Source: Novosphingobium sp. JCM 18896 (lineage in GTDB: Bacteria; Pseudomonadota; Alphaproteobacteria; Sphingomonadales; Sphingomonadaceae). Taken from it: a DNA stretch of 64,000 nt. Positions 41,579 through 55,778 of this stretch are shown piece by piece; the first letter of the stretch is position 1; every line of letters begins with the position of its first letter. The position numbers were made by a program, and so were the translations under genes. The DNA lies in contig NZ_JAPCZF010000002.1 in assembly GCF_025938095.1 (NCBI RefSeq), positions 310,001-374,000 on the forward strand, given 5' to 3'. The notes below the pieces were generated by a model. It saw nothing but the letters and a program-made list of their open reading frames with translations, did not search any database and was not told the DNA's origin.

Positions 41579-44386
41579 CTACTTGAACGTGTAGCGGACA
41601 CCCAGCGCGAAGGTGCGCGAAAGCAGCGTGGTACCGAGGTTGAACTGGTCGGGACCGCCGACGTCTTCGAACTTATAGTAGGTCTGCTGCTTCGACTTGG
41701 TCAGGTTCACCGCGTCGAAGGTGATGCCCAGGCGATCGTTGACGTTGAAGGTCAGCTGGAGGTCGAGGCTCTGCTCGGGGTTGCGCCAGACGCCGATCGG
41801 GTTGGCGAACAGGCGGGCTTCGTTGACCGCCAGGAACTCCTTGCGCCAGATGTACGAGAGGCGCGCGCCGATCGGACCGTTATCGTAGGCCAGGGTGGCG
41901 TTGTACGACAGGTCGGACACGCCGAAGAACGACGAGGTCGCCTGGCCGGTGATGTTACCTGCCGCATCGGACAGCGGAATGTTCTGCTTGGAATCGAGCA
42001 CCGTCACGCTGCCCACGAAGCCCAGGCCGTCCAGGAACTTGGGCAGGTAGTGCGGGAAGTAGGTGAGGCCGAGCTCGATACCCTTGAGCACGCCGTCTGA
42101 AGCATTGACCGGACGGGTGATCGCGAAGCGGTTGGTTGCACCGGCGACGATGCCGTTGTTCGGGATCGTCTCCATCACCGTCAGCGGCACGACCAGGCCG
42201 TTGATCTCGCGGCGGAAGGCCGTCGCGGTGATCGCGCTGTCGCGGTCGAAATACCATTCGAGTGCGACGTCGTAGTTCTTCGAGGTCGTCGGCTTCAGGC
42301 TCGCCGTGCCCGCCGTGCCGCTGCCGTAGCCCACGTTGGTGAGGTCACCCGTCAAGGTGTAGTTCGGGTTCACGTCGGTGAAGTTCGGACGGCGCAAGGT
42401 CTCGCCGTAGTTGAAGCGCAGGCGCAGCTTGTCGGTGATCTCGTAGCGCGCGGTGAAGGCCGGCAGCCACTTGCTCGAACCGTTCGACACGCGGGTGTGG
42501 GCACCGTTGTTGTAGCGGTCGAAGAAGTCGTAATTGGTGTCGACCGTGACGTAGCGCACGCCCGCCTGGAGCATCAGCGGACGCCCGAGGATCGAAACCT
42601 CGGCATCGGCCTGGACATAGGCGGCGATCGTGTTCTCGTTGATCGCGAAGACCTGCTGCAGCGCGAGCTGGTCCGAGGTCTTCACACCGTAGAGGCCGCG
42701 GACGGCATCGGCGTTGTCGTAGAGCCACGAGCCGTTGGGCAGGACCCAGGAGGTCGGCACGTCGGCGCGGCCCTGGTAGAAGTCCTTGTTGGTGAAGACC
42801 GATTCCGCGCCGAACCGCGAGACGAAGCTGGCGAGGTTGAGCCCGCCGACGGGTGCGCCGGCGTCCTGGGTGCGCACGAAGGACGAACCCTTGCGGTCGT
42901 CGATGCGCACGCCCGCCTTGATCTTGCGGAGGAAGCCCTCGTCCCAGGTGTAGTAACCGTCGAGCGTGCCGGTGATGGCGCTGCCCTTGTCGCGGTTGGC
43001 GTTGTCGTAGAGCTGGGCGAGGTTCCACACCGCCGGATTGGTCAGCAGGCTGTCGTCGCTGAAGTGGTACGACGGAATGCCGCCGCCGGCGTTGAACACC
43101 GTGCTGATCGAGCTCGCGACGCGATCGGTGCGCATGGCCAGGAACGAGCTGTCGACCTTGCTGGTCTGATAGGCGAGGTCGGCGACGATCTTGCCGCGAT
43201 CGCCCAGGTCCCACTTGCCGTTCAGCGCATAGACGAAGCTGTCGGTCTTCGACTTGGTGAAATCGCCGCTGTTGAAGCCGTAGACGTCGGCGACGTTGGT
43301 GCGCGACTTAATGATGTTGGTGCCGTCATAGAGCCCGACCGTGCCCGGGTTGCCCCACCAGTCGACGAAGCTGAACTGCAGGCTGTTGAAGGTCTCGCCG
43401 CGGAAGCCGGCGTAGTAGACTTCGGCGGTGTAGACCGAGCTGGTGTTCGGCGCCCACTGCAGCGCGACGTTGAACGAGGGACGCTCGCGCTTGCCGTAGA
43501 GGTCCGAGCTGAACACGGCATCGCGCGACAGGTAGTACGGCACGTTCACGCCGTTGATCCGCAGGGTCGAGCCCGGCGCGGTCGAGAGGCCGCGGTCGAG
43601 GCCGGGCGTCCAGTTGACGTTGTCGGCGCCGGGGAAGATGCGCTCGAGCGGGGCCAGGCCCGAACCAGCCGGCGGGGTCTGGGTTGCGAAGGGCACGAGC
43701 GCGCCCGCGGTCACGGTCTGGTCGCGGAACTTGGTGCGGCTGTAGGAGCCGTTCACCAGCAGGCCGATCTCGCCCACGCCCGTGTCCCAGCGGTTGCTGA
43801 TCAGCAGCGCGGCGTTGGGGTTATAGGTGTCGGCCTGCTCGTTGTAGATGCCGCGGACGAGGCCCGAGATGGCGAAGCCGTCGAAGTCGAACGGGCGGCG
43901 CGTCTCGACGTTGATCTGGCCGGCGAGGCCGGTCTCGATCTGGTCGGCGGCGCGGGTCTTGAACACGTCGACGCGGTTGACGAGGTTGGCCGAGATGTCC
44001 TGCAGCGCGAAGGACTGGCCGGTCGTGGTGAAGATGTTGCGGCCGTTGAGCGTGGTCAGCGCGTCGGGCAGGCCGCGGATCGACAGCGCCGCGGCTTCGC
44101 CGCCCGTGCGGTTGGTGACCTGCACGCCGGTGACGCGCTGGAGCGCCTCGACGACGTTGTTGTCGGGCAGCTTGCCGACGTCTTCGGAAACGATCGAATC
44201 GACGATCTGCACCGATTCCTTGCGGACGTTGATCGCGCCGACGATCGAGGCGCGGACGCCGGTGACGACGATCGCTTCGCCGTCACCCTCGGCGCTGTCG
44301 GGAGCGACATCCTGTGCCTGGGCGGCGCCGGCGATGGTCAGCGCAAGAACGGATGCGGCACAGTATGCGAATGGCTTGAACGCCAT
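41579..44386 (-). CDS. TonB-dependent outer-membrane receptor of the arabinan locus
   Basis: A 935-residue TonB-dependent receptor of the long type common in sphingomonads and Caulobacter for carbohydrate import. It has a signal peptide (MAFKPFAYCAASVLALTIAGAAQAQ), a TonB box in 'GEAIVVTGVRASI', plug motifs 'SVQIVDSIVSEDVGKLPDNNVVEALQRVTGVQV', 'AALSIRGLPDALTTLNGRN', 'NLVNRVDVFKT' and 'LAGQINVETRRPF', and a barrel ending in the aromatic 'FALGVRYTFK'. GAGGG supports ATG at 44384-44386. Its own promoter region carries two copies of the locus operator motif, so it is predicted to be induced with the arabinose genes and to import arabino-oligosaccharides. Confidence 0.92.
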   Translation of the reverse strand: MAFKPFAYCAASVLALTIAGAAQAQDVAPDSAEGDGEAIVVTGVRASIVGAINVRKESVQIVDSIVSEDVGKLPDNNVVEALQRVTGVQVTNRTGGEAAALSIRGLPDALTTLNGRNIFTTTGQSFALQDISANLVNRVDVFKTRAADQIETGLAGQINVETRRPFDFDGFAISGLVRGIYNEQADTYNPNAALLISNRWDTGVGEIGLLVNGSYSRTKFRDQTVTAGALVPFATQTPPAGSGLAPLERIFPGADNVNWTPGLDRGLSTAPGSTLRINGVNVPYYLSRDAVFSSDLYGKRERPSFNVALQWAPNTSSVYTAEVYYAGFRGETFNSLQFSFVDWWGNPGTVGLYDGTNIIKSRTNVADVYGFNSGDFTKSKTDSFVYALNGKWDLGDRGKIVADLAYQTSKVDSSFLAMRTDRVASSISTVFNAGGGIPSYHFSDDSLLTNPAVWNLAQLYDNANRDKGSAITGTLDGYYTWDEGFLRKIKAGVRIDDRKGSSFVRTQDAGAPVGGLNLASFVSRFGAESVFTNKDFYQGRADVPTSWVLPNGSWLYDNADAVRGLYGVKTSDQLALQQVFAINENTIAAYVQADAEVSILGRPLMLQAGVRYVTVDTNYDFFDRYNNGAHTRVSNGSSKWLPAFTARYEITDKLRLRFNYGETLRRPNFTDVNPNYTLTGDLTNVGYGSGTAGTASLKPTTSKNYDVALEWYFDRDSAITATAFRREINGLVVPLTVMETIPNNGIVAGATNRFAITRPVNASDGVLKGIELGLTYFPHYLPKFLDGLGFVGSVTVLDSKQNIPLSDAAGNITGQATSSFFGVSDLSYNATLAYDNGPIGARLSYIWRKEFLAVNEARLFANPIGVWRNPEQSLDLQLTFNVNDRLGITFDAVNLTKSKQQTYYKFEDVGGPDQFNLGTTLLSRTFALGVRYTFK

Positions 44387-44432
44387 GATTGAATTCCCTC
44401 CCATATAGGCCGGCCCTGTGGCTCGGTGCCCT

Positions 44433-44467
44433 GGATTACTCGGACTAATTATTTGTCCGAGTAATCC
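44433..44467. promoter_or_regulatory. Perfect inverted repeat with two operator motifs upstream of the TonB receptor
   Basis: GGATTACTCGGAC (44433-44445) and GTCCGAGTAATCC (44455-44467) are exact reverse complements around a nine-base AT-rich spacer. Each arm contains the 11-base motif TA-S-TC-S-GA-S-TA (44437-44447, and TTGTCCGAGTA at 44453-44463), also found at 52167 and 54559. It is 47 bp upstream of the receptor start. Confidence 0.7.
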
Positions 44468-44498
44468 GATGCAAGGGAAAATGCATGGCGGGCGTCAG

Positions 44499-44520
44499 AT
44501 TTCATTCATATACATGAAAT
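44499..44520. promoter_or_regulatory. Second inverted repeat upstream of the TonB receptor
   Basis: ATTTCAT (44499-44505) and ATGAAAT (44514-44520) are perfect seven-base arms with an eight-base spacer, in an AT-rich stretch. A second regulator site, or part of the promoter, is possible. No copy was noticed at the other promoters of the locus. Confidence 0.35.
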
Positions 44521-44544
44521 ATAGTAATTTAATGGGGAGTATCA

Positions 44545-44559
44545 GGCCGATTTTCGGCC
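44545..44559 (-). terminator. Short hairpin after the GH43/AbfB gene
   Basis: GGCCGA (44545-44550) and TCGGCC (44554-44559) with a three-base loop lie 24 bp past the stop of the last operon gene. No T-run follows on the minus strand, so termination would be weak. Confidence 0.35.
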
Positions 44560-44583
44560 GATCTTGTCCTACCTGAATGCGAC

Positions 44584-46002
44584 TCAGTCGGCTTTCCAGA
44601 CCGAGGCCGGATCGCCGCGCGAGGTCAGGTGCAGAGCACCCTCCGCCGACGACAGCACCTTTCCGCGCTGCAGGCTGGACTCGAACTGAACCGTGCCGCG
44701 CGCGGAACCCGGCAGACGCCGGAAGCGATCGGCGCCGGGCGCGAAGCCGCTCTCGCCCTGACGCGCCAGTCGCACCGAACCGTCGCTGGCGACGGCGAGG
44801 CTATGGTCGGGCAGAAGGATCGGCGAAAGGCGGACGAGGCCGCCCGGCTCCACCACCGCGCGGAACTGCGTCGCCGGCAACGCCGCCGCGCCGACGAAAG
44901 CGTGCGGACCGTCGTGCGCAAGCTGGAGCCCGGGCTTCCTCGCCGACGCGAAGCGCTCGGGCAGCACGCCGTTGCCCACGGGCACGCCGAAATCGGGGCT
45001 GCCATCGGGCTTGTAGTAGAGCCGCTGCATGCGCGTGTGGCGGTTGGGATCGAAAAGCGGATCGCCGGTAATCGCCTCGTAATCGCGGCCGTGGTAGACC
45101 AGCACGTCGCGGCCCTGCTCGTCCACGGTGAAGCTGTTGTGCCCGGGGCCAAAGACCGAAGTCTCGCGGCAGGTGACGAAGACCGGCTCCTGCGACTTGC
45201 TCCAGGCGCGCGCGTCCATCAGGTCGGCATCGGCGTCGATCGTCAGCAGGCCCAGGCAATAGCGCGCATCGGTGGCGCTGGCCGAATAGGTCATGAACAG
45301 CCGGCCATTGCGCTCGATCACGGCGGGTGCCTCGGCGACCTTGTAGCCGCGGATCTCCCAGTCGAGCGTCGGCACGGTCAGCCGCGTCGCCTTGGCCGCC
45401 AGGGTCAACGGCGTCGCCAGCGGCGCGATGTAGAGGTTCGAATTGGTCTCGATCCCCGGTTCGCGCTGCGCCCAGGCGAAATAGCGCTTGCCGCGGTGCA
45501 CGAAGCTCGTGGAATCGAGATTGAAGCTGTCCCACGGCGCCTTGAACTCGCCGAGAACGGACCATTTACCCCGCATCGGATCGGGTCCGTCGCAGACCAC
45601 CGCATAGGTGCGGATGCGGAACACGTCCTCGCCGCCGCCGCTCGGCCCGGCGGCGAAATACATGATCCAGCGGCCGTCGATCCAATGCAGTTCGGGCGCC
45701 CAGAGGAAACCCGACATCGGCCCGCTGGCCTCGTGGCGCCAAAGCACCGCTTCCTCCGCCGTGGCCAGGCCGGCCAGGGTCCGCGAGCGGCGCAGCACCA
45801 ACCGGTCGTACTCGGGCACCGAGCCCGTCATGTAGTAGAAGCCGTCGTCGTGACGGAACACCTGCGCGTCGGCGCGCTGGCGGACCAAGGGATTGACCGG
45901 TGCTGCCACAGGTCGCCGCGTGGTGGCATCGAGGCGGGCATTCGCCAGCGGCAATAGCGCGGCGCCGGCGACGAAAGTGCGGCGCGAAAGGGGGAACTGC
46001 AT
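44584..46002 (-). CDS. Tat-exported GH43 family glycosidase with AbfB-like C-terminal domain
   Basis: A 472-residue glycoside hydrolase family 43 protein, a five-bladed beta-propeller enzyme releasing L-arabinofuranose or xylose. The N terminus has a twin-arginine signal (SRRTFVAGAALL). Likely catalytic residues are Asp45 in 'RADAQVF', Asp163 in 'FNLDSTSF' and Glu224 in 'KVAEAPAVIE'; 'FGPGHNSFTVDEQGRDVLVYHGRDY' is typical of the propeller's last blade. From about residue 370 the sequence ('FVGAAALPATQFRAVVEPGG...VRLARQGESGFAPGADRFRRLPG') resembles an arabinose-binding AbfB (CBM42) trefoil. GGAGAGG precedes the ATG. It is the last gene of the leftward arabinose operon. Confidence 0.87.
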   Translation of the reverse strand: MQFPLSRRTFVAGAALLPLANARLDATTRRPVAAPVNPLVRQRADAQVFRHDDGFYYMTGSVPEYDRLVLRRSRTLAGLATAEEAVLWRHEASGPMSGFLWAPELHWIDGRWIMYFAAGPSGGGEDVFRIRTYAVVCDGPDPMRGKWSVLGEFKAPWDSFNLDSTSFVHRGKRYFAWAQREPGIETNSNLYIAPLATPLTLAAKATRLTVPTLDWEIRGYKVAEAPAVIERNGRLFMTYSASATDARYCLGLLTIDADADLMDARAWSKSQEPVFVTCRETSVFGPGHNSFTVDEQGRDVLVYHGRDYEAITGDPLFDPNRHTRMQRLYYKPDGSPDFGVPVGNGVLPERFASARKPGLQLAHDGPHAFVGAAALPATQFRAVVEPGGLVRLSPILLPDHSLAVASDGSVRLARQGESGFAPGADRFRRLPGSARGTVQFESSLQRGKVLSSAEGALHLTSRGDPASVWKAD

Positions 46003-46027
46003 CGGGGCCTCTCCAGAGCTTGTGGTG

Positions 46028-47038
46028 TCAGTTTTGCGCGACGGGCCAGCCGTCTGCGCCCCAGCGGATCGGCGCGATCCGCATCGTCGGGACGCCGTTA
46101 TTCTCGCGATCATAGGCGTGGTAGACGACGTAGGTGGTGCCGTCCCTGTCGGTGAAAGCGCCGGCGTGGCCGGGACCGCGGAAGCGCTGCTGCTCCTGCA
46201 GATCGGCGCGCAGGAAGATCGAGCCCCCGCCCTGCATCATCGCGCTGCCGTCCTTGCCGAGATAGGGCCCGGTGACCGAGCGCGACCGCGCGACGACCGT
46301 GTAATAGGTGCTGTTCACGCCCTTGCAGCAGTAGTCGTAGGACGCGAGCAGGTAATACCAGCCGCCGTGCGGAATGATGAAAGGTGCTTCGACCGGCGCC
46401 GGCCCGCCCGCGGGGGCGGGGCGGCGCGCGATCGAAAGCGGTTTGGTGCCGGGCGCGGGCTTGCCCGTCGCCGGATCGAGCGCGAAGAGCTTGAGCCCGG
46501 TCCAGAACGAGCCCAACGCGAGCCATTGCTTACCCTCGGCATCGACCACCAGGTTGGGATCGATCGCGTTGAAATCGCTTTCCGGGACCGACTGCACGAC
46601 CAGACCGCGATCGGTCCAGCCGTAGTTCGCCGCCTTGGGGTTCAGGGTCGGGCTGGTGGCGAGGCCGATCGCCGAGCGGTTCGAGCCGAAGGTCGAGACC
46701 GAATAGTAGAGCCGGTATTCGCCGTTCACGAAGGATATGTCGGGCGCCCACAGATCCCCGGCGCCGGGCACCGCCCGGGTCGCCCAGGCGGGCAGTTCCT
46801 TGAGCAGGGTGTCACCCGCGGTCCAGTGCTTGAGATCCTTGGAACTGCGCGAGACGATGTATTTTCCGCCCGTGCTGAACACGTAATAGGTGTCGCCCTC
46901 GCGGATGATCACCGGGTCGTGAACATGGGTGATGTCGCCCGAGAGCTGCGCGTTGAGCGAGGCCGGTGCCGGCTCCGCGCCGGCGGCACTGGCGGCGACG
47001 AGCGCCGCCAGGCCGATGATATTGCGTAAGGCCCTCAC
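46028..47038 (-). CDS. Exported GH43 arabinan endo-1,5-alpha-L-arabinosidase
   Basis: A 336-residue GH43 enzyme of the endo-arabinanase type (GH43 subfamilies 4/5-like), which cleaves the alpha-1,5-arabinan backbone. The signal peptide is short (VRALRNIIGLAALVAASAAGAE). Catalytic residues are Asp41 in 'THVHDPVII', Asp160 in 'NAIDPNLVV' and Glu217 in 'APVEAPFIIPHGGWYYLLASYDYCC'. 'GDLWAPDISFVNGEYRLYYSVST' is strongly characteristic of arabinanases. GTG at 47036-47038 overlaps the GH51 stop, coupling the two. Confidence 0.93.
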   Translation of the reverse strand: MRALRNIIGLAALVAASAAGAEPAPASLNAQLSGDITHVHDPVIIREGDTYYVFSTGGKYIVSRSSKDLKHWTAGDTLLKELPAWATRAVPGAGDLWAPDISFVNGEYRLYYSVSTFGSNRSAIGLATSPTLNPKAANYGWTDRGLVVQSVPESDFNAIDPNLVVDAEGKQWLALGSFWTGLKLFALDPATGKPAPGTKPLSIARRPAPAGGPAPVEAPFIIPHGGWYYLLASYDYCCKGVNSTYYTVVARSRSVTGPYLGKDGSAMMQGGGSIFLRADLQEQQRFRGPGHAGAFTDRDGTTYVVYHAYDRENNGVPTMRIAPIRWGADGWPVAQN

Positions 47039-48600
47039 CGCAGCTGCAGCACGACGACCGACTTCGCCGGCAGCGTCACCACCAGCTTGCCGCCCTGCAC
47101 CTGCGCGCCGTTGAAGGCGGCCGGCTTGACCACTTCGGGGGCGGCGAAGGTGTTGTGCGCGTTGATCGCATTCGCGGTGAGGATGCGGCCCGAAGCCTCG
47201 CTCACGGCAATGCCGTCGAGGCCGATCGTCACCGTGTTGGTCTGGTTCGGATCGAGGTTCGACAGGCCCAGATAGACCTTGCCGTCCTTGGCGCGCACGG
47301 CCGAGCCGCTGACCGCCGGTACCGCGAAGTCGCCCTTCTTGTACTGCGGGGTCTTGAGCTCGATCGGCAGCACGGTCGCATCCTGCCACGGCTTGTACAT
47401 CTCGAAGACGTGGTAGGTCGGCGTCAGCACCATCTTGGGGCCGTCGGTCAGGATCATTGCCTGGAGCACGTTGACCATCTGCGCGATCGCCGACATCCGC
47501 ACGCGGTCGGCATGCTTGGCGAAGATGTCGAGGTGGACCGAGGCGATCAGCGCGTCGCGCAAGGTGTTCTGCTGGCGCAGGAAGCCCGGGTGGGTGCCCG
47601 GATCCTGGGCATACCAGGCGCCCCATTCGTCGACCGCCAGGAAGACGCGCTTCTGCGGATCGTACTTGTCCATGATCGCGCTGTGCTTGGTGATCAGCTC
47701 GTCCATGCGCATCGCGCCGGCGAGCGCATCGGCCCAGCCGGTCTCGTCGAAATCGACCGCCGGCGCGCGCGGCGGCCAGCCGCCGGCGGGGTGGACGTAG
47801 TAGTGCAGCGACACCGCATCGAGCTGGCCCGCCGCGATCTTCATCATCGCCTCGGTCCAGTCGTAGTCGGCGACATTGGCGCCGGCGGCGATCTTCGTGA
47901 TCTTGGTGCCCGCGGGCGCCTTGACGAACGTCGCGTAGCGGCGCGTGACGTCGGCCGCATATTCGGCGCGCATGTTGCCACCGCAGCCCCACAGTTCGTT
48001 GCCGACGCCGAAATAGGGGACCTTCCACGGCTCCTTGTGGCCGTTGCGCGCGCGCTCTTCGGCGAGGCTGCCCGCGGGGGCGGTCATGTATTCGACCCAT
48101 TCGGCCATTTCCTGCGGGGTGCCGTTGCCGACGTTGCCCGCGATATAGGCCTCGGCGCCGACCTGACGCAGCAGTTCGAAGAACTCGTGCGTGCCGACGG
48201 TGTTGGGCTCGGTCACGCCGCCCCAATGGGTGTTGACCTTGACCGGGCGCTTGGCCTTGGGGCCGATGCCCTCACGCCAGTGGTATTCGTCGGCGAAGCA
48301 GCCGCCCGGCCAGCGGATCACCGGCACCGACAGGTTGCGCAGCGCCGCGACGACGTCGTTGCGGAAGCCGTTGGTGTTGGGGATCGTCTTGTCGTTGCCG
48401 ACCCAGAGCCCGCCGTAGATGCCGTTGCCGAGATGCTCGGCGAACTGGGTGAAGATCAGCTTGTCGTAGACCGGGCCGGGCTTGTCGGCGCGGATCGTCG
48501 CGGTGCTGAGCTGGCCGGCCGTGTCGGCCTGGGCGGCGCCAACGATGGCGACGGTGGAAAGCAGCAGCGCAGCGGCGGCGCGGCGCAGGGTCTTGAACAT
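47035..48600 (-). CDS. Exported GH51 alpha-L-arabinofuranosidase
   Basis: A 521-residue retaining exo-enzyme removing terminal L-arabinofuranose from arabinan and arabino-oligosaccharides. The family markers are 'IRWPGGCFADEYHWREGIGP', acid/base Glu202 in 'FGVGNELWGCGGN' and nucleophile Glu325 in 'AVDEWGAWY', with the C-terminal beta-sandwich after about residue 400. An N-terminal signal (MFKTLRRAAAALLLSTVAIVG) predicts export, whereas many GH51 enzymes are cytoplasmic. It has the same GGAGAGGCCCCG leader before its ATG as the terminal GH43 gene. It lies 37 bp downstream of the dehydrogenase gene. Confidence 0.95.
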   Translation of the reverse strand: MFKTLRRAAAALLLSTVAIVGAAQADTAGQLSTATIRADKPGPVYDKLIFTQFAEHLGNGIYGGLWVGNDKTIPNTNGFRNDVVAALRNLSVPVIRWPGGCFADEYHWREGIGPKAKRPVKVNTHWGGVTEPNTVGTHEFFELLRQVGAEAYIAGNVGNGTPQEMAEWVEYMTAPAGSLAEERARNGHKEPWKVPYFGVGNELWGCGGNMRAEYAADVTRRYATFVKAPAGTKITKIAAGANVADYDWTEAMMKIAAGQLDAVSLHYYVHPAGGWPPRAPAVDFDETGWADALAGAMRMDELITKHSAIMDKYDPQKRVFLAVDEWGAWYAQDPGTHPGFLRQQNTLRDALIASVHLDIFAKHADRVRMSAIAQMVNVLQAMILTDGPKMVLTPTYHVFEMYKPWQDATVLPIELKTPQYKKGDFAVPAVSGSAVRAKDGKVYLGLSNLDPNQTNTVTIGLDGIAVSEASGRILTANAINAHNTFAAPEVVKPAAFNGAQVQGGKLVVTLPAKSVVVLQLR

Positions 48601-48637
48601 CGGGGCCTCTCCTGAAGGTCGATCTTGGGTCGGATTG

Positions 48638-49564
48638 TCAGTCGTGAAACGCGGCGACGGTCTCGCGCCGGCCGCGCAGGAAGGCGTCGGCCACCAGGCG
48701 CAGCGGATCGATGTCGACGTCGCTGCGGCCACCACGGATCAGGTTTGCGAAGCGCGCGTAGAGCCCCGCATATTCGAGATCGTCGGCGTGCTCGGTGCCC
48801 GTCGGCAGGGTCAGCACGGCGCCGCCGCTCGACAGCTTGAGCGTGCCCGCATCGGTCTCGACCTCGATGTCCCAGCTCTGCGGGCCGGTCTGGCGCCAGT
48901 CGAGATCCATGTGGATGTCGGCGCCGGCCGTGTCGCAGAACTGGAGATCGGCGGCGATCGGCGCGGCGCGGTTCTCTGGGATGCTCAGGGTCGCGGTCTT
49001 GAGGAAGACCGGCCGCGGCAGGATATGGGTGAGGATCGACAGCGCGTTGATGCCCGGATCGAACACGCCGAGCCCGCCCGGTTCCCAGATCCAGGCCTGG
49101 CCCGGATGCCAGACCCGCACGTCCTCGCGCCAGACCACCGAGACGCGCTCGACCTTGCGATCGGACAGCCAGGCGCGCGCCGGCGCGACACCCGCGGCGA
49201 AGCGCGAGTGCCAGGCCGCGAACAGGGTAGCGTCGACCTTGGCCGCGCGATCGCGCAGCGCCGCGACTTCGGACAGCGTCGCGCCCGGCGGCTTCTCGAG
49301 GAAGACGTGGACGCCGCGCTTGAGTGCCATGGCCGCGAGGCCGTAACGCACCTGCGGTGGTGTGCAAAGCGCGACCGCGTCGACCGCCGGACCGTCGTTC
49401 AGCAGGTCCTCGAGCCGCGCCAGGTGCGGCACGCCGACCGGGCCCGGATCGTCGGGGCTGACCGTTGCCGCCAGGCTGAAGGCCGGGTTGCCCTGGATCG
49501 CCGGCAGGTGCTGGTCGCGCGCGATCTTGCCGAGGCCGACGACCGCGATGCGAATCGGGTCCAT
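48638..49564 (-). CDS. L-arabinose 1-dehydrogenase (Gfo/Idh/MocA family)
   Basis: A 308-residue NAD(P)-dependent dehydrogenase predicted to oxidise L-arabinose to L-arabino-1,4-lactone, the first step of the oxidative pathway. The Rossmann motif is 'VVGLGKIARDQHLPAI', the conserved Lys91 is in 'EKPPGAT', and the substrate-site stretch 'WHPGQAWIWEPGGLGVFDPGI' is nearly as in the characterised Azospirillum brasilense L-arabinose dehydrogenase and related D-galactose 1-dehydrogenases. Galactose activity is therefore possible too. There is only a four-base gap from the AraD1 gene. Confidence 0.9.
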   Translation of the reverse strand: MDPIRIAVVGLGKIARDQHLPAIQGNPAFSLAATVSPDDPGPVGVPHLARLEDLLNDGPAVDAVALCTPPQVRYGLAAMALKRGVHVFLEKPPGATLSEVAALRDRAAKVDATLFAAWHSRFAAGVAPARAWLSDRKVERVSVVWREDVRVWHPGQAWIWEPGGLGVFDPGINALSILTHILPRPVFLKTATLSIPENRAAPIAADLQFCDTAGADIHMDLDWRQTGPQSWDIEVETDAGTLKLSSGGAVLTLPTGTEHADDLEYAGLYARFANLIRGGRSDVDIDPLRLVADAFLRGRRETVAAFHD

Positions 49565-49568
49565 CGGC

Positions 49569-50567
49569 TCAGAGCGCCTTGACCGCGACCGCGGCGTCTT
49601 CGGCGCGGGTCAGCGGATTGGCCAGCGGCAGCGCGAAAGGCGCGGCCGAGATCTCGAACACGTCACCTTCCTGCGTCTGCACGCCGTCGGCGAAGGACAG
49701 GGTCGCAGTGCCGAAGAAGTGGACGTGAATGTCGCCCGGGCGGCGGAACTGCGCATACTTGAAGTGGTGATGCTCGAGATTGGCGATCGTGTGCGACATG
49801 TTGCCCTCGCCCGAAAGGAAAGGCTTTTCCCAGATCACCGCGCCGCCGCGCAACAGGCGGCTGGTGCCCTCGACGTGCTCGGGCGGCGTGCCCAGCAGCA
49901 GCTCGGCGCCGAGCGCGGCCTGGCGCAGCTTCGAGTGCGCGAGCCACAGGTAGTTGTGCCGCTCGGTGACGTGGTCGCTGAACTCGTTGGCCAGCGCCAG
50001 GCCGAGACGATAGGGCGTGCCATCCTCGTCGATGATGTAGATGCCGGCGAGCTCGGGCTCCTCGCCGCCGTCCTGCGCGAAGGCCGGCATGGCCAGCGGA
50101 TCGGTCGCCGAGACGAGCTGCGAGCCATCGCCCTTGTAGAACCATTCGGGCTGCTGGCCGACCGTGCCGGGCGCCGGCTTGCCGCCTTCGAGCCCTTCGA
50201 GGAACATGCGCATCGAGTCCGTCTGCTTTTCGGTCTCGGCCGCGGCGCGGTGCATCTTGTCGCGCCCCTCGGCCGAGCCGAGGTGGGTCAGCCCCGTTCC
50301 CGCGAGCACGAGATGCGCGGGATCCTCATGATCGATCGGCGGCAGCAGGTTGCCCGCGGCGAACTCCGCAGCGATGTCGACCGCCGCGCCGCGCGGGCAG
50401 GCCTTGGCCGCGTCGAGCAGCGAGGTTCCCGCGGTCAGCGCCTTGAGCGCGAGCGCGCGCGTGCTGGTCACGCCGCCGAGGATGAAATGGGCGCTGTCGC
50501 CCTCAGCCAGGATGACCGAGCGGGTACCGTCGGACGCGCGATGTTGGAGCAGGCGAATGGCAGTCAT
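49569..50567 (-). CDS. AraD1/GguC-type 2-keto-3-deoxy-L-arabonate dehydratase
   Basis: A 332-residue member of the fumarylacetoacetate-hydrolase superfamily in the AraD1/GguC group, dehydrating 2-keto-3-deoxy-L-arabonate to 2,5-dioxopentanoate (alpha-ketoglutarate semialdehyde). Typical parts are 'GTGLTHLGSAEGRDKMH', 'EPELAGIYIIDEDGTPYRLGLALANEFSDHVTE' with metal-binding carboxylates, 'AHSKLRQAALGAELLLG', and the C-terminal 'RPGDIHVHFFGTATLSFADGV'. ATG at 50565-50567 was chosen for the GGGAGAG five bases upstream; a TTG directly before it is the alternative. Confidence 0.9.
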   Translation of the reverse strand: MTAIRLLQHRASDGTRSVILAEGDSAHFILGGVTSTRALALKALTAGTSLLDAAKACPRGAAVDIAAEFAAGNLLPPIDHEDPAHLVLAGTGLTHLGSAEGRDKMHRAAAETEKQTDSMRMFLEGLEGGKPAPGTVGQQPEWFYKGDGSQLVSATDPLAMPAFAQDGGEEPELAGIYIIDEDGTPYRLGLALANEFSDHVTERHNYLWLAHSKLRQAALGAELLLGTPPEHVEGTSRLLRGGAVIWEKPFLSGEGNMSHTIANLEHHHFKYAQFRRPGDIHVHFFGTATLSFADGVQTQEGDVFEISAAPFALPLANPLTRAEDAAVAVKAL

Positions 50568-50620
50568 CAAATCTCTCCCTGCCGCGGCGCCGCTGCGGAC
50601 GCCGCGGGTGCATATGTGGA

Positions 50621-52150
50621 TCAGCCGAGCGTGAGCGCGCCGTCGATCAGGCGCGGCGCGCCATCGGTCTTGGCGTCATCGCGCAGTTCGGCGGGCAGGA
50701 TCGCCTGCGCGAGGTTCTGGTAGGACACCGGCCGCAGGAAGCGGTCGATCGCGAGGCTGCCGACCGAGGTCGTCCGCGCGTCGGAGGTCGCGGGGAACGG
50801 GCCGCCGTGGACCATGGCGTGGCAGACCTCGACACCGGTCGGCCAGCCGTTGGCGAGAATGCGGCCGGCCTTGCGTTCGAGCAACGGCAGCAGGCGGCCG
50901 GCGAGCGGCTCGTCGGCACCGTCCATCTGCAGGGTCGCGGTGAGCTGGCCCTCGAGACCGGCGACCACAGCGGCGAGCTCGGCCTCGTCCTGGCAGCGCA
51001 CGACGATCGACGAGGCGCCGAACACCTCGTGCTGGAGCGCCTTGTCGGCGAGGAACTGGGCTCCCGTGGTCTGGAACAGCACCGCACCGCCGCAGGTCGT
51101 GTTGCCGGCATCGCCCTGGGCCAGGGTCTCCACCGCGGCATGACCCGCCAGCGCCCCGGTACCGCTGCCGAAGGCGGCGCGGATGCCGGTGGTGAGCATG
51201 GTCTGCGGCGCCGCCTCGGCCACGGCGCCGCTCGCCGCGGCGACGAAGGCGTCGAGCCCTTCGCCCGCGATGGCGATCACGAGACCGGGGTTCGTGCAGA
51301 ACTGGCCCGCGCCCATGGTCAGCGAGCCGACGAAGGCCTTGCCCAGCGCTTCGCCGCGCGCCTTCAGCGCTTCGGGCAGCAGCAGGACGGGATTGATGCT
51401 CGACATCTCGGCATAGACCGGGATCGGCACCTCGCGCGCCTGGGCCAGCTTGACCAGCGCGAGGCCGCCGCCGCGCGAGCCGGTGAAGCCGACCGCGGTG
51501 ATGCGCGGATCCTGGACCAGCGCGGCGCCGAGTTCGTTCGACGGGCCGGCGACGTGGCCGAACACGCCGGCCGGAAGCCCGCTGGCCTCGACCGCGCGGG
51601 CGATCGCACCGGCAACGAGCGCGCCGGTCTGCGGATGGGCGGGGTGGCCCTTGACCACGACCGGGCAACCGGCGGCGAGCGCCGAGGCGGTGTCACCGCC
51701 CGCGGTCGAGAAGGCGAGCGGGAAGTTCGAGGCGCCGAACACCGCGACCGGGCCGAGCGGAATCATACGCAGGCGCAGATCGGGGCGCGGCAGCGGCTGG
51801 CGCTCGGGCAGCGCCGGATCGATGCGAAGCTGCTGCCACAGGCCCTTGCGCACGACGTCGGCGAACATCTGCAGCTGGCCGATCGTGCGGCCGCGCTCGT
51901 TCTCGATGCGCCCGCGCGGCAGGCCGCTCTCGGCGACGGCGGCTTCGACCAGCGAATCGCCGAGCGCGAGGATCTCGGCGGCGATTCGCTCGAGGAAGCG
52001 CGCACGATCCTCGCGGCTGGTGGCGCGGTAGACGTCGAAGGCCGCCTCGGCGGCGGCGCAGGCCGCGGCGACTTCGGCCGGTCCGTCGACCTGGAAGGGC
52101 TCGCCGAAAGGCTCGCCGGTCGCTGCGGCCACGGAACGGAATTCGGTCAT
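50621..52150 (-). CDS. 2,5-dioxopentanoate (alpha-ketoglutarate semialdehyde) dehydrogenase
   Basis: A 509-residue aldehyde dehydrogenase of the NADP-type subgroup that oxidises 2,5-dioxovalerate to 2-oxoglutarate, the last step of the oxidative arabinose pathway. Catalytic Cys285 lies in '[12 protein letters not shown]', Glu248 in '[12 protein letters not shown]', and Asn142 in '[11 protein letters not shown]'; '[16 protein letters not shown]' and '[11 protein letters not shown]' form the cofactor region. A strong AAGGAG precedes the ATG. It is the first gene of the leftward operon ALDH-AraD1-dehydrogenase-GH51-GH43-GH43 and carries the locus operator motif 17 bp upstream. Confidence 0.93.
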
Positions 52151-52166
52151 ATCGGTGCTCCTTATT

Positions 52167-52177
52167 TACTCCGACAT
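52167..52177. promoter_or_regulatory. Locus operator motif between ALDH and GntR genes
   Basis: TACTCCGACAT is one copy of the TA-S-TC-S-GA-S-TA motif (two end mismatches), in the 113-bp divergent region, 17 bp upstream of the ALDH start and 87 bp from the GntR start. Confidence 0.5.
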
Positions 52178-52263
52178 ATTATTCCTGCGCAGGAAACGCA
52201 ATCTTTGTCGTTCCCTGTCGGCAAGATGGCTGTTAGGCTTTGATCGAAGGGGAATATCGTATC

Positions 52264-53019
52264 GTGACCGAGCCTAAATCCGCCAATGACGAAGACGGAG
52301 CAGAGCGCCTGAAGGAGACGCGCGGTCCTGGGCGGAGGCTGCACGGAGCGATTGCGCACAAATTGGGTACGGCGATATTGTCCGGCCAATATGCCCCGGG
52401 CGACGTGCTCTCGGGCGAAGTCGCCTTCGCCGAGGAGCTCAAGGTATCGCGCAGCGCCTATCGCGAAGCGATCCAGGTGCTCACCGCCAAGGGCCTCGTT
52501 GCGAGCCGCCCCAAAGCGGGCACGCGCGTGCTGCCGCGCGACCGCTGGAACCTGCTCGATCCCGAAGTGCTCGCCTGGGCCTTCGCCGGCGAACCCGACG
52601 TCGAATTCGTCCGCGACCTGTTCGAACTGCGCGCGATCATCGAGCCCGCCGCCGCGCGGCTCGCCGCCCAGCGTCGCGACAAGGCCGACCTCAAGGTGAT
52701 GAAGGATGCACTGGCCGGCATGCGCCGCCACACCTTGACCACCGACGCGGGCCGCGCCGCCGACCGCGACTTCCACAACGCCATTCTCCAGGCGACGCGC
52801 AACCACGCACTCGTCGTGCTCAGCGCCTCGATCGGCGCGGCGGTGCACTGGACCACACAGTTCAAGCAGCGCTCGCGCGAGTTGCCACGCAACCCGATCC
52901 CCGACCACGTGCGCGTCTATGACGCCATCGCCGCCGGCGAGGCGGAAGCCGCGGCGGAGGCGATGGGCGTCCTCGTCGATCTCGCGCTGGAGGACACCCG
53001 CAGTTCGATGGAGAACTGA
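52264..53019 (+). CDS. FadR-family GntR transcriptional regulator, probable arabinose regulon controller
   Basis: A 251-residue GntR protein of the FadR subfamily. The winged helix-turn-helix covers 'LHGAIAHKLGTAILSGQYAPGDVLSGEVAFAEELKVSRSAYREAIQVLTAKGLVASRPKAGTRV'. The C-terminal FCD-type all-helical domain has 'DLFELRAIIEPAAARLAA', 'RDFHNAILQATRNHAL' and 'IPDHVRVYDAIAAGEAEAA', where the aspartate and histidines usually bind a metal next to the effector. GTG at 52264 follows AAGGGG by ten bases. It is divergent from ALDH and flanked on both sides by arabinose genes, so it is the best candidate for binding the shared operator motif. Confidence 0.88.
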   Translation: MTEPKSANDEDGAERLKETRGPGRRLHGAIAHKLGTAILSGQYAPGDVLSGEVAFAEELKVSRSAYREAIQVLTAKGLVASRPKAGTRVLPRDRWNLLDPEVLAWAFAGEPDVEFVRDLFELRAIIEPAAARLAAQRRDKADLKVMKDALAGMRRHTLTTDAGRAADRDFHNAILQATRNHALVVLSASIGAAVHWTTQFKQRSRELPRNPIPDHVRVYDAIAAGEAEAAAEAMGVLVDLALEDTRSSMEN

Positions 53020-53047
53020 AGGGCGAGATCCCAGGACCTAGACAAAC

Positions 53048-53125
53048 CCCGCTCACCCTGAGCTTGTCGAAGGGTGCCGGCGCGAACGTTGCGACCGGTG
53101 CTTCGACAAGCTCAGCACGAGCGGG
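53048..53125. repeat. REP-like inverted repeat between GntR and MFS genes
   Basis: CCCGCTCACCCTGAGCTTG... (53048-53072) and its near-exact reverse complement (53101-53125) have 25-base arms with two mismatches and a 28-base spacer. It is the same family as 20213-20284 and occupies the gap between convergent genes, where it may terminate both. Confidence 0.82.
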
Positions 53126-53145
53126 ATTTGGTATAGCCGGCAGGC

Positions 53146-54495
53146 TCAAGCCGTTGGCGCTTCGACCTCGGTATCGGCCAGCGCCGCGGTCGGGCGCGAA
53201 CCCCACAGCGCATAGAACAGGATGTAGAGCTCGCAGGCCGCGGTCAGCAGGAACGAGGTCTGCAGCCCGACGTGGTCAGCGATGTAGCCCTGGACCACGA
53301 CGAGCGCGCCGCCGGCGATCGCCATGACGAGCAGGCCCGAGGCCTCCTCGGTCAACGGCCCCAGGCCCTTGATCCCGAGCGTGAAGATCGTCGGGAACAT
53401 GATCGAGTGGAACAGGCCGACGAGGATCAGCGACCACATAGCGGCGGGGCCATGTGCGAAGACCGTGACCAGCATCACCACGAAGGCACCGACCGAGAAC
53501 AGCGCGAGCACCTTGGCCGCGTCGAAGCGTTGCATGATCGCCGAACCGGCGAAGCGGCCGACCATCATGCCGCCCCACAGGAACGACAGATACTTGCCCG
53601 CCTGCTCGTGGGTCAGGTTGGCGATCTCGGGCTGGCTGACGAAGTTGATGAACAGGTTGGCCACGCCGATCTCGGCGATCAGGTAGATGAAGATCGCCGG
53701 AACGCCGAGCACGAGATTGCGGTGCTGCCACAGCGGATGGTGCCAGAAGCGCTGCCAGGCGCCCTGGCCCGCACCTTCGAGCAGGGCCTCGCGCCGTGAC
53801 GCGGTCGAGACCATCGCCGGTAGCGGGAACTTGGCGATCACCACCGCGAGGACCAGCAGCACCGCAGCAACCAGGCCATAGGGCAGGATCACCGACTGCG
53901 CGTCGGCCAGGCGCTCGGCATGGGTCAGGACGACGCCGGCCTCGGCCGTGCCACCCTTGGAGCGACCGAGGATCAGGTAGGCGCCGAACATCGGCGCGAG
54001 CATGGTCCCCGCGGAGTTGAGCGCCTGCACTAGGTTGAGCCGCGACGAGGCCGTCTCGGGCTTGCCGACCACGGCGACGTAGGGATTGGCCGCGACCTGG
54101 AGCAGGGTGATGCCGCAGGCGATCACGAAGAGCATCGTCAGGGTCACGCCGTAGGACGGGATCGAGGCCGCGAGCATCATGCCGAGCGAACCGCCCGCCA
54201 TGATCAGCAGGCCGATCACCAGCGACTTCTGGTAGCCGAGGCGCTCGATCAGCTTGGCAGAGGGAATCGACGCCACGAAATAGGCGATAAACCAGACGGA
54301 TTCGATCAGGGTTGTCTGCGTATAATTGAGCTCGAACACGCTGCGCAGGTGCGGCAGCAGCGTGTTGTTGATGACCGTGATGAAGCCCCACATGAAGAAC
54401 AGGCTGGCGAGCAGCGTCAGCGCGGGACCGTAGCGAACCGCGCCATCCTGCCGGTTCGTCAAAGGCTTGGCGCTCGAAGGGACCGCAGGGGGCAT
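53146..54495 (-). CDS. FHS-family (FucP-like) sugar MFS transporter
   Basis: A 449-residue permease with 12 predicted membrane helices. It fits the fucose/glucose/galactose:proton symporter family: 'FFMWGFITVINNTLLPHLRSVFELNYTQTTLIESVWF', 'FVASIPSAKLIERLGYQKSLVIGLLIMAGG', 'LLQVAANPYVAVVG' with the family's ANPY motif, and 'RLNLVQALNSAGTMLAP'. It would carry L-arabinose across the inner membrane. GAGAGG precedes the ATG, and an operator motif lies 64 bp upstream, shared with the divergent mutarotase operon. Confidence 0.92.
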   Translation of the reverse strand: MPPAVPSSAKPLTNRQDGAVRYGPALTLLASLFFMWGFITVINNTLLPHLRSVFELNYTQTTLIESVWFIAYFVASIPSAKLIERLGYQKSLVIGLLIMAGGSLGMMLAASIPSYGVTLTMLFVIACGITLLQVAANPYVAVVGKPETASSRLNLVQALNSAGTMLAPMFGAYLILGRSKGGTAEAGVVLTHAERLADAQSVILPYGLVAAVLLVLAVVIAKFPLPAMVSTASRREALLEGAGQGAWQRFWHHPLWQHRNLVLGVPAIFIYLIAEIGVANLFINFVSQPEIANLTHEQAGKYLSFLWGGMMVGRFAGSAIMQRFDAAKVLALFSVGAFVVMLVTVFAHGPAAMWSLILVGLFHSIMFPTIFTLGIKGLGPLTEEASGLLVMAIAGGALVVVQGYIADHVGLQTSFLLTAACELYILFYALWGSRPTAALADTEVEAPTA

Positions 54496-54558
54496 ATCGT
54501 TCCTCTCAGATCACGAAGCCGAAACACCGAGCGGCAAAGCGGCTTGCACATTTTCTAT

Positions 54559-54569
54559 TTGTCGGACTA
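54559..54569. promoter_or_regulatory. Locus operator motif between MFS and mutarotase genes
   Basis: TTGTCGGACTA, a near-perfect 5-1-5 palindrome, is the same motif as at 44433-44467 and 52167-52177. It lies midway in the divergent region, 64 bp from the MFS start and 60 bp from the mutarotase start. Confidence 0.6.
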
Positions 54570-54629
54570 TATAGATTGCAACGCTGCGTCAATGGAGCAG
54601 CGAATGCCATAGATATGGGAGCTTCGGGA

Positions 54630-55778
54630 ATGCGGAAACTGGGCAAGAGACTGGCGACTTCGGCGGTTCTCGCCTTGGCTTCCACGTTCGCGGGCACGGC
54701 TATGGCCGCCGATGCGACCCAGGCTCCGGCCGGCACGCTCGCCGATGGCACGCCGATCACCGCGATCACGCTCAAGGCCGGCAACGGCGTCTCGGCGGTG
54801 GTGCTCAGCTACGGCGCGACCCTGCAGAAGCTGTTCGCGCCCGATCGCGCGGGCAAGGTCGCGGACGTCGTGCTCGGCTACGATGATCTCGCGTCCTATG
54901 TCGATCACCCCAACTATTTCGGCGTCACCGTCGGACGCTATGCCAACCGCATCGCCGACGGCAAGTTCGCGCTCGACGGCAAGACCTACCAGCTGCCCCA
55001 GAACGACGGCGGCAACAGCCTCCACGGCGGCGGCAAGGGCTTCGACAAGGCGGCCTGGCAGGTCGTCTCGGTCAAGTCCGGCCCCACGGCCAGCGTCGTC
55101 CTGCGCCACGTCAGCCCCGACGGCGATTCGGGCTATCCGGGCAAGCTGACCGCGACGGTCACCTACACGCTCGACGAGGCCGGCAACCTCGGCATCCTGT
55201 TCGAGGCGAGCACCGACAAGCCGACCGTGGTCAATATGACCAACCACGCGATCTTCGACATGGGCGGCGAAGGTTCGCCCGAAGGCGCGACCGGCCATCG
55301 CCTGACGATCCCGGCCGCCCGCTATACCCCGGTCAACGCCAAGCTGATCCCGACGGGCGAGCTCAAGCCGGTCGCCGGTTCGGTCTTCGATTTCCGCGCG
55401 GCGCGGCGCGTCGCCGACGGCCTGCGCGACGGCACCGATCCGCAGATCGTCTTCGGCCGCGGCTACGATCACAACTTCGCGCTCGACAAAGGCCTGACCG
55501 CCAAGCCCGAACTGGCCGCACGGCTCGAGGATCCGGCTTCGGGCCGCGTGCTCGAAGTGCTGACCACCGAGCCCGGCGTGCAGTTCTACGCGGGCAACTT
55601 CCTCGACGGGACGCTGATCGGCAAGCACGGCCACGTCTACCGCATGGGCGACGGCATCGCGCTCGAGCCGCAGAAGTTCCCCGATGCGCCCAACCAGGCC
55701 GCCTTCACCTCTCCGCGCGTCGATCCCGGCAAGCCTTACCGGCACGCCATGATCTACCGCCTGTCCACTTCACGCTGA
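54630..55778 (+). CDS. Exported aldose 1-epimerase (mutarotase)
   Basis: A 382-residue GalM-type mutarotase interconverting alpha and beta anomers of aldoses. Catalytic His206 lies in '[14 protein letters not shown]', conserved His132 in '[11 protein letters not shown]', and general base Glu346 in '[14 protein letters not shown]'; '[15 protein letters not shown]' is typical. ATG at 54630 was chosen because it opens a signal peptide ([20 protein letters not shown], cleavage near AMAA), so the enzyme acts in the periplasm on L-arabinose freed by the exported hydrolases before transport. The upstream in-frame extension is not signal-like. It heads the rightward operon, 10 bp before the dehydratase gene. 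Confidence 0.92.

What the first reader, a model, noticed from the sequence alone, without database searches (positions are those of the whole stretch)
44433..54569. One near-palindromic motif at three divergent or separate arabinose promoters
The motif TA-S-TC-S-GA-S-TA occurs twice in a perfect 13-base inverted repeat at 44433-44467 (receptor), at 52167-52177 (ALDH/GntR) and at 54559-54569 (MFS/mutarotase). The copies sit within 17-90 bp of start codons and were not noticed elsewhere in the window. The FadR-type GntR protein at 52264 is the nearest regulator, so this is its likely operator.
Basis: partly seen in the sequence, partly recalled or inferred. Interest (0 to 1): 0.7.

Follow-up and report, generated by a model that had tools for sequence, protein, structure and literature searches.

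The report
GntR operator set controlling arabinose cluster
Four copies of one 15-letter DNA sign lie just before the leading genes of a likely arabinose gene cluster and nowhere else in the held genome, and because related genomes have the sign almost only together with the cluster's own GntR-type protein, that protein is the likely repressor of the whole pathway, predicted to let go when an arabinose-derived acid appears.

Summary
The better form, WWWWGTC-S-GASTAWW, has exactly four perfect matches in the held 5.33-Mb genome, all here. In 80 related gntR loci the strict site lies upstream of gntR in 79, of MFS in 61 of 68, of galM in 62 of 68, and upstream of three usually inner genes in 0 of 161. 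The 'inverted repeat' at the receptor is two sites 16 bp apart: the spacing recurs in 33 related promoters, the hairpin mostly does not. Attribution to the FadR-type GntR protein rests on co-occurrence (motif in 60 of 64 genomes with the close orthologue, 3 of 107 without a match), a DgoR-like operator layout, and residue 64 of the recognition helix: the four orthologue-bearing genomes without the motif have Gly or Thr instead of Ser. The recognition-code part is suggestive only: the tree-based test was underpowered. Binding, repression and inducer are untested. A well-supported regulon of a familiar kind, not described in the papers listed by my searches.

The parts
44450..44466 (+). predicted operator O1 of the TonB-dependent receptor (17-mer, centre 44458), between a possible -35 (44469-44474, TTGCAT on the - strand) and a possible -10 (44446-44451)
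   Evidence: matrix score 22.0; a pair of sites 16 bp apart also in 33 related receptor promoters
44434..44450 (-). predicted operator O2 of the receptor (centre 44442), over the possible -10; O1+O2 make up the reported inverted repeat 44433-44467
   Evidence: matrix score 22.8
52164..52180 (-). predicted operator in the ALDH/gntR intergenic region (centre 52172, 22 bp from the ALDH start, 92 bp from the gntR start); its left half holds a likely -10 (52173-52178, TATGTC on the - strand; -35 TTGCGT at 52196-52201)
   Evidence: score 21.8; site upstream of gntR in 79 of 80 relatives; promoter layout read
54556..54572 (+). predicted single operator between divergent MFS and galM (centre 54564), overlapping the likely -10 of both (galM TTGCAC 54544-54549 / TATATA 54568-54573; MFS TTGACG 54587-54592 / TATAGT 54566-54571, - strand)
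   Evidence: score 23.5; 61 of 68 MFS and 62 of 68 galM upstream regions of relatives; layout read
52264..53019 (+). gntR: FadR-subfamily GntR regulator (GntR + FCD domains), predicted repressor; GTG start
   Evidence: Pfam PF00392 and PF07729; next best match in the own genome E 1.2e-7, 30% identical; best PDB match is DgoR, 7c7e
41579..44404 (-). TonB-dependent receptor
   Evidence: TIGR01782 above cut-off
44584..46113 (-). GH43 family hydrolase
   Evidence: PF04616
47035..48603 (-). alpha-L-arabinofuranosidase (C-terminal domain family)
   Evidence: PF06964
48638..49564 (-). Gfo/Idh/MocA dehydrogenase, likely arabinose 1-dehydrogenase
   Evidence: PF01408; substrate inferred
49569..50570 (-). 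AraD1/GguC family protein, likely 2-keto-3-deoxyarabonate dehydratase
   Evidence: NF040903 above cut-off; reaction inferred
50621..52150 (-). aldehyde dehydrogenase, first gene of the - strand gene row
   Evidence: PF00171
53146..54495 (-). sugar MFS transporter (GluP/FucP type)
   Evidence: TIGR01272 above cut-off
54630..55778 (+). aldose 1-epimerase (mutarotase), first gene of the + strand gene row
   Evidence: PF01263
55789..57585 (+). IlvD/Edd dehydratase, likely arabonate dehydratase
   Evidence: NF009560 above cut-off; L-arabinonate dehydratase model PRK13016 below its cut-off

Best explanation
Four copies of one conserved sequence lie upstream of the receptor, ALDH/gntR and MFS/galM genes of a likely arabinose cluster, and the cluster's own FadR-subfamily GntR protein is the likely repressor that binds them. 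Each dimer would sit over the -10 region of a promoter (of two divergent promoters at MFS/galM; two neighbouring dimers 16 bp apart at the receptor) and keep the outer-membrane receptor, the transporter, the mutarotase-dehydratase row and the long dehydrogenase-dehydratase-hydrolase row off. A sugar acid of the pathway (L-arabonate or 2-keto-3-deoxy-L-arabonate) bound at the metal site of the FCD domain would release it. Shown here: the sites, their conservation and positions, their co-occurrence with the protein, the conserved metal-site residues. Inferred: binding, repression, operons, the -35/-10 elements, the substrate and the inducer. Repression of gntR itself is uncertain, since the site lies 92 bp from its start.
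For: Only four perfect 15-letter matches in the held genome, all in the cluster. Relatives L020-L099, strict pattern within 200 bp of the start: gntR 79/80, ALDH 45/46, MFS 61/68, galM 62/68, receptor 21/39; Gfo/Idh 0/67, IlvD 0/42, SMP30 0/52, GH43b 0/60; reversed pattern 0 at each gene. Order: 13 of 147 genomes have the AraD1 protein (E<=1e-30) and all 13 have the close GntR (E<=1e-76); one further genome has the close GntR without AraD1. Genus, 195 genomes: perfect motif in 60/64 with a GntR of 72% identity or more, 10/24 with only a 53-61% relative, 3/107 with no match at E<=1e-60. Layout GTC-S-GAS against GTA-G-TAC of DgoR and GTM-N0-1-KAC of the FadR subfamily (PMC4494728). Residue 64 (= HTH position 39 of PMC4494728, reported there to correlate with site positions 9/11): Ser in 50/64 genomes, all 50 with the motif; the 4 genomes without it have Gly (1) or Thr (3). 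In L090 (Gly) the two best sites both read GTA instead of GTC. Metal-site residues R123, D167, H171, H215 (DgoR R102, D146, H150, H195) in 186/186.
Against: No binding, expression or inducer data. Three of four window sites have GAG, not GAC, in one half, so they are imperfect palindromes. Residue 64 is not the whole code: 10 of 14 non-Ser genomes keep the motif, many Gly proteins go with GTC sites (for example L217-L226, L281), the third, weaker L090 match reads GTGCGA, and only four supported tree-independent pairs exist (position 9 goes with the residue in 1.7 on average, against in 0.0; not significant; the central base does not follow it, 0.4 against 1.1). The sigma-70 scan found none of the proposed -35/-10 pairs at its thresholds; they rest on conservation, and the receptor's are weak even there. 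18 of 39 receptor upstream regions lack the strict site; tblastn receptor hits include other receptors. 16 of 43 Thr loci have no site scoring 8.
Confidence: 0.82

Rival explanations
1. Another transcription factor, encoded elsewhere, binds the motif, and the GntR protein is a bystander.
For: No binding data exist; 10 of 24 genomes with only a 53-61% GntR relative still hold a motif copy, and 3 of 107 with no match.
Against: Motif and close GntR go together (60/64 against 3/107); the sites have the FadR-subfamily layout; absence of the motif among orthologue-bearing genomes goes with a changed recognition-helix residue; in L090 the two best sites, at two promoters, carry the same changed base.
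Confidence: 0.08
2. The inverted repeat at 44433-44467 acts as RNA (hairpin in the receptor leader, or terminator of the upstream GH43 gene).
For: The window copy folds strongly (-34.4 kcal/mol, z -5.8).
Against: No terminator-like site found there. In 33 related receptor promoters the 16-bp spacing of the two sites is kept while 28 of 33 keep only 7-9 of the 13 arm pairs. The same unit occurs singly at other promoters.
Confidence: 0.04
3. The sites are conserved only as core promoter parts (-10 elements), not as operators.
For: They overlap likely -10 elements, with conserved -35-like boxes before ALDH, galM and MFS.
Against: Four perfect copies in 5.33 Mb is no general promoter; conservation covers more than a hexamer and tracks presence of gntR.
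Confidence: 0.04
4. The GntR protein binds the sites but acts as an activator or a dual regulator.
For: Some FadR-subfamily proteins activate (known for FadR; recalled, no call).
Against: Sites overlap the likely -10 region, not the region upstream of -35; DgoR, the closest solved relative, is a repressor.
Confidence: 0.1

Closest known systems
DgoR of Escherichia coli (D-galactonate repressor, PDB 7c7e)
   Same: GntR + FCD architecture, best PDB match (E 5.2e-29); odd palindrome with one central base (IR1 holds TTGTA-G-TACAA; PMC12288454, passages seen); two closely spaced repeats overlapping a promoter (same passages); metal ligands D146, H150, H195 and pocket residue R102 (PMC7674646, passages) all conserved.
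   Different: Central letters GTC/GAS instead of GTA/TAC; recognition-helix Ser where the alignment has Asn in DgoR; predicted targets are arabinose genes including a TonB-dependent receptor; the stretch around DgoR Q173-T191 aligns poorly.
AraR2 of Halomonas (GntR family, predicted arabinonate regulon; PMC5507952)
   Same: GntR-family regulator predicted to control oxidative arabinose/arabinonate genes (passages seen).
   Different: Halomonas has another gene set (ABC and TRAP transporters, a second LysR-type AraR); its motif is in a supplement not seen, so orthology was not tested.
AraR of Bacillus subtilis (AraR subfamily of GntR)
   Same: GntR-type DNA-binding domain; arabinose genes (PMC4218819, start of abstract in a listing; PMC4494728, passages).
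   Different: PMC4494728 lists AraR as a minor subfamily apart from FadR, by type of C-terminal domain; the window protein has an FCD domain.

Membership tests
FadR subfamily of GntR regulators | N-terminal GntR winged helix-turn-helix domain | tested here: met
   PF00392, 48.4 bits against cut-off 27
FadR subfamily of GntR regulators | C-terminal all-helical FCD domain | tested here: met
   PF07729, 86.5 bits against cut-off 24.3; no structure was predicted
FadR subfamily of GntR regulators | usual (not defining) operator NyGTM-N0-1-KACNy | tested here: inconclusive
   GTC-S-GA in 4 of 4 window sites; the second half is GAC in 1 and GAG in 3. PMC4494728 says that single sites can deviate from the palindrome
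DgoR | GTA-G-TAC operator and D-galactonate as effector | tested here: not met
   operator: window sites read GTC-S-GAS against GTAGTAC. Effector: not testable here. Not filed as DgoR
LldR, NanR, PdhR, GlcC, UxuR, ExuR (NCBIfam models) | score above the model's curated cut-off | tested here: not met
   best 79.1 bits against a cut-off of 311 (LldR)
metal-dependent FCD sugar-acid sensor (DgoR type) | Asp-His-His metal site | tested here: met
   D167, H171, H215 in 186 of 186 distinct homologues by alignment; metal binding itself not testable
repressor of its own cluster | binds the operators and represses without inducer | not testable with these tools
   only positions over likely -10 elements

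The most novel reading that the evidence does not exclude
This regulon is a natural evolution series of a DNA-recognition code: in Sphingomonadaceae the arabinose GntR repressor has repeatedly changed one recognition-helix residue (Ser to Gly or Thr at HTH position 39), and the operators across the regulon have followed at site position 9 (C to A), so that a regulator and its dispersed operators were rewired together while the regulon kept its function.
Probability: 0.4. Interest if true: 0.65.

Novelty: new member of a known kind. Interest (0 to 1): 0.45.

Why it matters
It gives a testable operator and regulator for oxidative arabinose catabolism in Sphingomonadaceae; the listings of my searches (most listings capped at 8-20 rows) and PMC5343134 searched by term showed no description of it. 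The predicted regulon joins an outer-membrane receptor, a transporter, hydrolases and the oxidative pathway under one switch, which could serve as an arabinose-responsive promoter set in laboratory Novosphingobium and Sphingobium strains. The residue and operator variation among 186 distinct homologues is a ready data set for testing how GntR proteins read DNA.

Tried and rejected
RNA hairpin/terminator reading of the inverted repeat: rejected. A link between residue 64 and the central operator base: raw counts lean that way for Thr (18 of 24 loci against 24 of 117 Ser loci), but independent pairs do not support it, so dropped. A significant tree-corrected link with site position 9: not reached. 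Regulon members elsewhere in the genome: one-mismatch hits are at chance level; one (C20:810766) lies 49 bp upstream of an ORF that I would read as a HAD-type phosphatase, not followed. Literature: 10 searches; no paper on this regulon among the rows listed. Sigma-70 scan: none of the proposed promoters found. No structure was predicted.
Full report
What is there. The window holds what looks like an oxidative arabinose cluster: on the - strand an aldehyde dehydrogenase, an AraD1/GguC protein, a Gfo/Idh/MocA dehydrogenase, an arabinofuranosidase, GH43 hydrolases and a TonB-dependent receptor; on the + strand gntR and, further on, a mutarotase, an IlvD/Edd dehydratase and an SMP30-like gene; and a sugar MFS transporter on the - strand (the second GH43 and the SMP30-like gene are named from reading, without a profile search). 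Substrates are inferred from families; the arabinonate dehydratase model is below its cut-off.

The observation. Oriented alike, the four copies share WWGTC-S-GASTA with A/T-rich flanks. A 17-position matrix from 52 distinct sites of relatives (191 before duplicates were removed), its three central positions replaced by a small bonus, scores them 21.8-23.5; the next place in the window scores 7.4. In the held 5.33-Mb genome WWWWGTCNGASTAWW has four perfect hits, all these. The looser WWGTCSGASTA has 13 (reversed control 48); of the nine others eight lie inside ORFs of 176 aa or more and one outside the ORFs listed.

Conservation. With the strict pattern within 200 bp of the gene start: gntR 79/80, ALDH 45/46, galM 62/68, MFS 61/68, receptor 21/39, AraD1 27/72 (loci in which no ALDH match was listed between), GH43a 6/63, GH51 5/68, and none before Gfo/Idh (67), IlvD (42), SMP30 (52) or GH43b (60). 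The reversed pattern gave 0 at each gene; letter shuffles 0.10-0.20 loci per gene. So the sites mark genes that lead a row and avoid those usually inside one.

The receptor pair. The 13-base inverted repeat is two 17-bp sites with centres at 44442 and 44458. Among 186 distinct loci, 74 have a receptor start in view, 64 have a site scoring 8 or more within 130 bp of one, and 33 have two sites (scoring 6 or more) exactly 16 bp apart there; 16 bp accounts for 33 of the 46 neighbouring pairs within 60 bp at receptors, while at other genes no pair had this spacing. The arms of the repeat are mostly not kept: 7-9 of 13 pairs in 28 of 33, 10-12 in the other five. The spacing, about one and a half helical turns, is thus what is conserved, fitting two neighbouring dimers (inference). 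DgoR also uses two closely spaced repeats over its promoter (PMC12288454, passages), and PMC4494728 describes double sites with constant spacing in the FadR subfamily (section 16 read).

Promoter layout. Alignments anchored on the sites show conserved -35-like boxes: before ALDH TTGCGT, 17 bp, then TATGTC, which is the left half of the site; before MFS TTGACG and before galM TTGCGC, with the site's TATAT end as likely -10 of galM and, read backwards, of MFS. At the receptor a TTGC-type box is seen in listed relatives but is weak in the consensus; in the window one site would lie between -35 and -10 and the other over the -10 (coordinates read). A standard sigma-70 scan does not find these at its thresholds, so the elements are inferred. 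The position of gntR's own promoter is unclear.

Which protein. (1) Of the ten cluster proteins scanned, gntR is the only regulator. (2) In 147 genomes of the order, 13 have the AraD1 protein and all 13 have the close GntR (E<=1e-76); one has the close GntR alone; 19 others have only distant relatives. (3) In 195 genomes of the genus the perfect motif (WWWWGTCSGASTAWW) occurs in 60 of 64 with a GntR of 72% identity or more, 10 of 24 with only a 53-61% relative, and 3 of 107 with no match at E<=1e-60 (Fisher p 3e-32 for the first class against the rest, relatedness not removed). (4) PMC4494728 (abstract, sections 10 and 16, passages) gives the FadR-subfamily operator as GTM-N0-1-KAC, links HTH position 28 Arg with G/C at site positions 6/14, and HTH position 39 with site positions 9/11. 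The window protein has Val at position 28 (residue 53; Val 78 and Ile 2 of 80) and the sites have A or T at that place (52 of 52 distinct training sites); it has Ser at position 39 (residue 64) where DgoR has Asn, and C/G where DgoR's operator has A/T. (5) Residue 64 was read in all 64 close orthologues: Ser 50, Gly 11, Thr 3. All 50 Ser genomes hold the motif; the four without it are one Gly and all three Thr (Fisher p 0.0016, relatedness not removed). The Gly one is L090, the only one of 80 without the motif; its two best sites, at gntR and at MFS/IlvD, read AATATGTAGGAGTAAAT and CATTTGTAGGAGTATAT, the same C-to-A change in both; a third, weaker match there reads GTGCGA.

How far the code goes. 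With the three central positions masked, sites scoring 8 or more near cluster genes (coding background 1 of 69,600 positions; 181,127 positions scanned) were found in 118/122 Ser, 18/20 Gly, 27/43 Thr and 1/1 Cys loci. Position 9 is A in 8 of 360 Ser sites, 11 of 48 Gly sites and 16 of 47 Thr sites. By locus, A is at least half in 5 of 117 Ser and 18 of 42 non-Ser loci, but only four supported independent pairs exist (same way 1.7, other way 0.0 on average), so common descent is not excluded. Many Gly proteins keep GTC sites. The residue cannot be the only determinant.

Inducer. The DgoR residues R102, D146, H150 and H195 (PMC7674646, passages) align with R123, D167, H171 and H215, present in 186 of 186 homologues. 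The stretch holding other DgoR pocket residues aligns poorly. A sugar acid bound with a metal ion is therefore likelier than free arabinose; which acid is open.

Novelty. The listings showed no description of this regulon (one search found no paper at all); the closest is a predicted Halomonas AraR2 (PMC5507952, passages), whose supplement was not available. RegPrecise itself could not be searched. The kind of system is well known, so the finding is a sound new member rather than a surprise.

Noticed in passing
L228 (G297): A 73%-identical GntR with Thr at residue 64 in a locus where no site reached the matrix threshold of 8; its operator, if any, must differ more.
   Followed up: no
L151-L161 and genomes G005, G125, G039, G056: These genomes carry three or four GntR relatives each, some beside other arabinose or hydrolase genes; sites there often read GTC-T-GA or GTA-T-GA, suggesting paralogues with shifted specificity.
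   Followed up: partly
window 52194-52214: A block GGAACGACAAA-G-ATTGCGTTT (on the - strand) between the site and gntR is conserved in many relatives; part is the likely -35 of ALDH, the rest may belong to the gntR promoter.
   Followed up: no
window 52375-52391: A weak site-like stretch (ATATTGTCCGGCCAATA, score 6.2) inside the gntR coding region.
   Followed up: no
G000:C20:810766-810780 (L303): A one-mismatch site 49 bp upstream of an ORF that reads like a HAD-type phosphatase; chance level as a class.
   Followed up: no
L038, L042, L043, L074, L086, L091; L053, L066, L073, L076, L077: Six Sphingobium loci carry an extra, nearly palindromic site about 22 bp before the GH43 gene; in five Sphingomonas loci GH51 takes the place of ALDH as divergent neighbour of gntR, with the site about 60 bp before it: the regulon's reach varies by genus.
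   Followed up: partly
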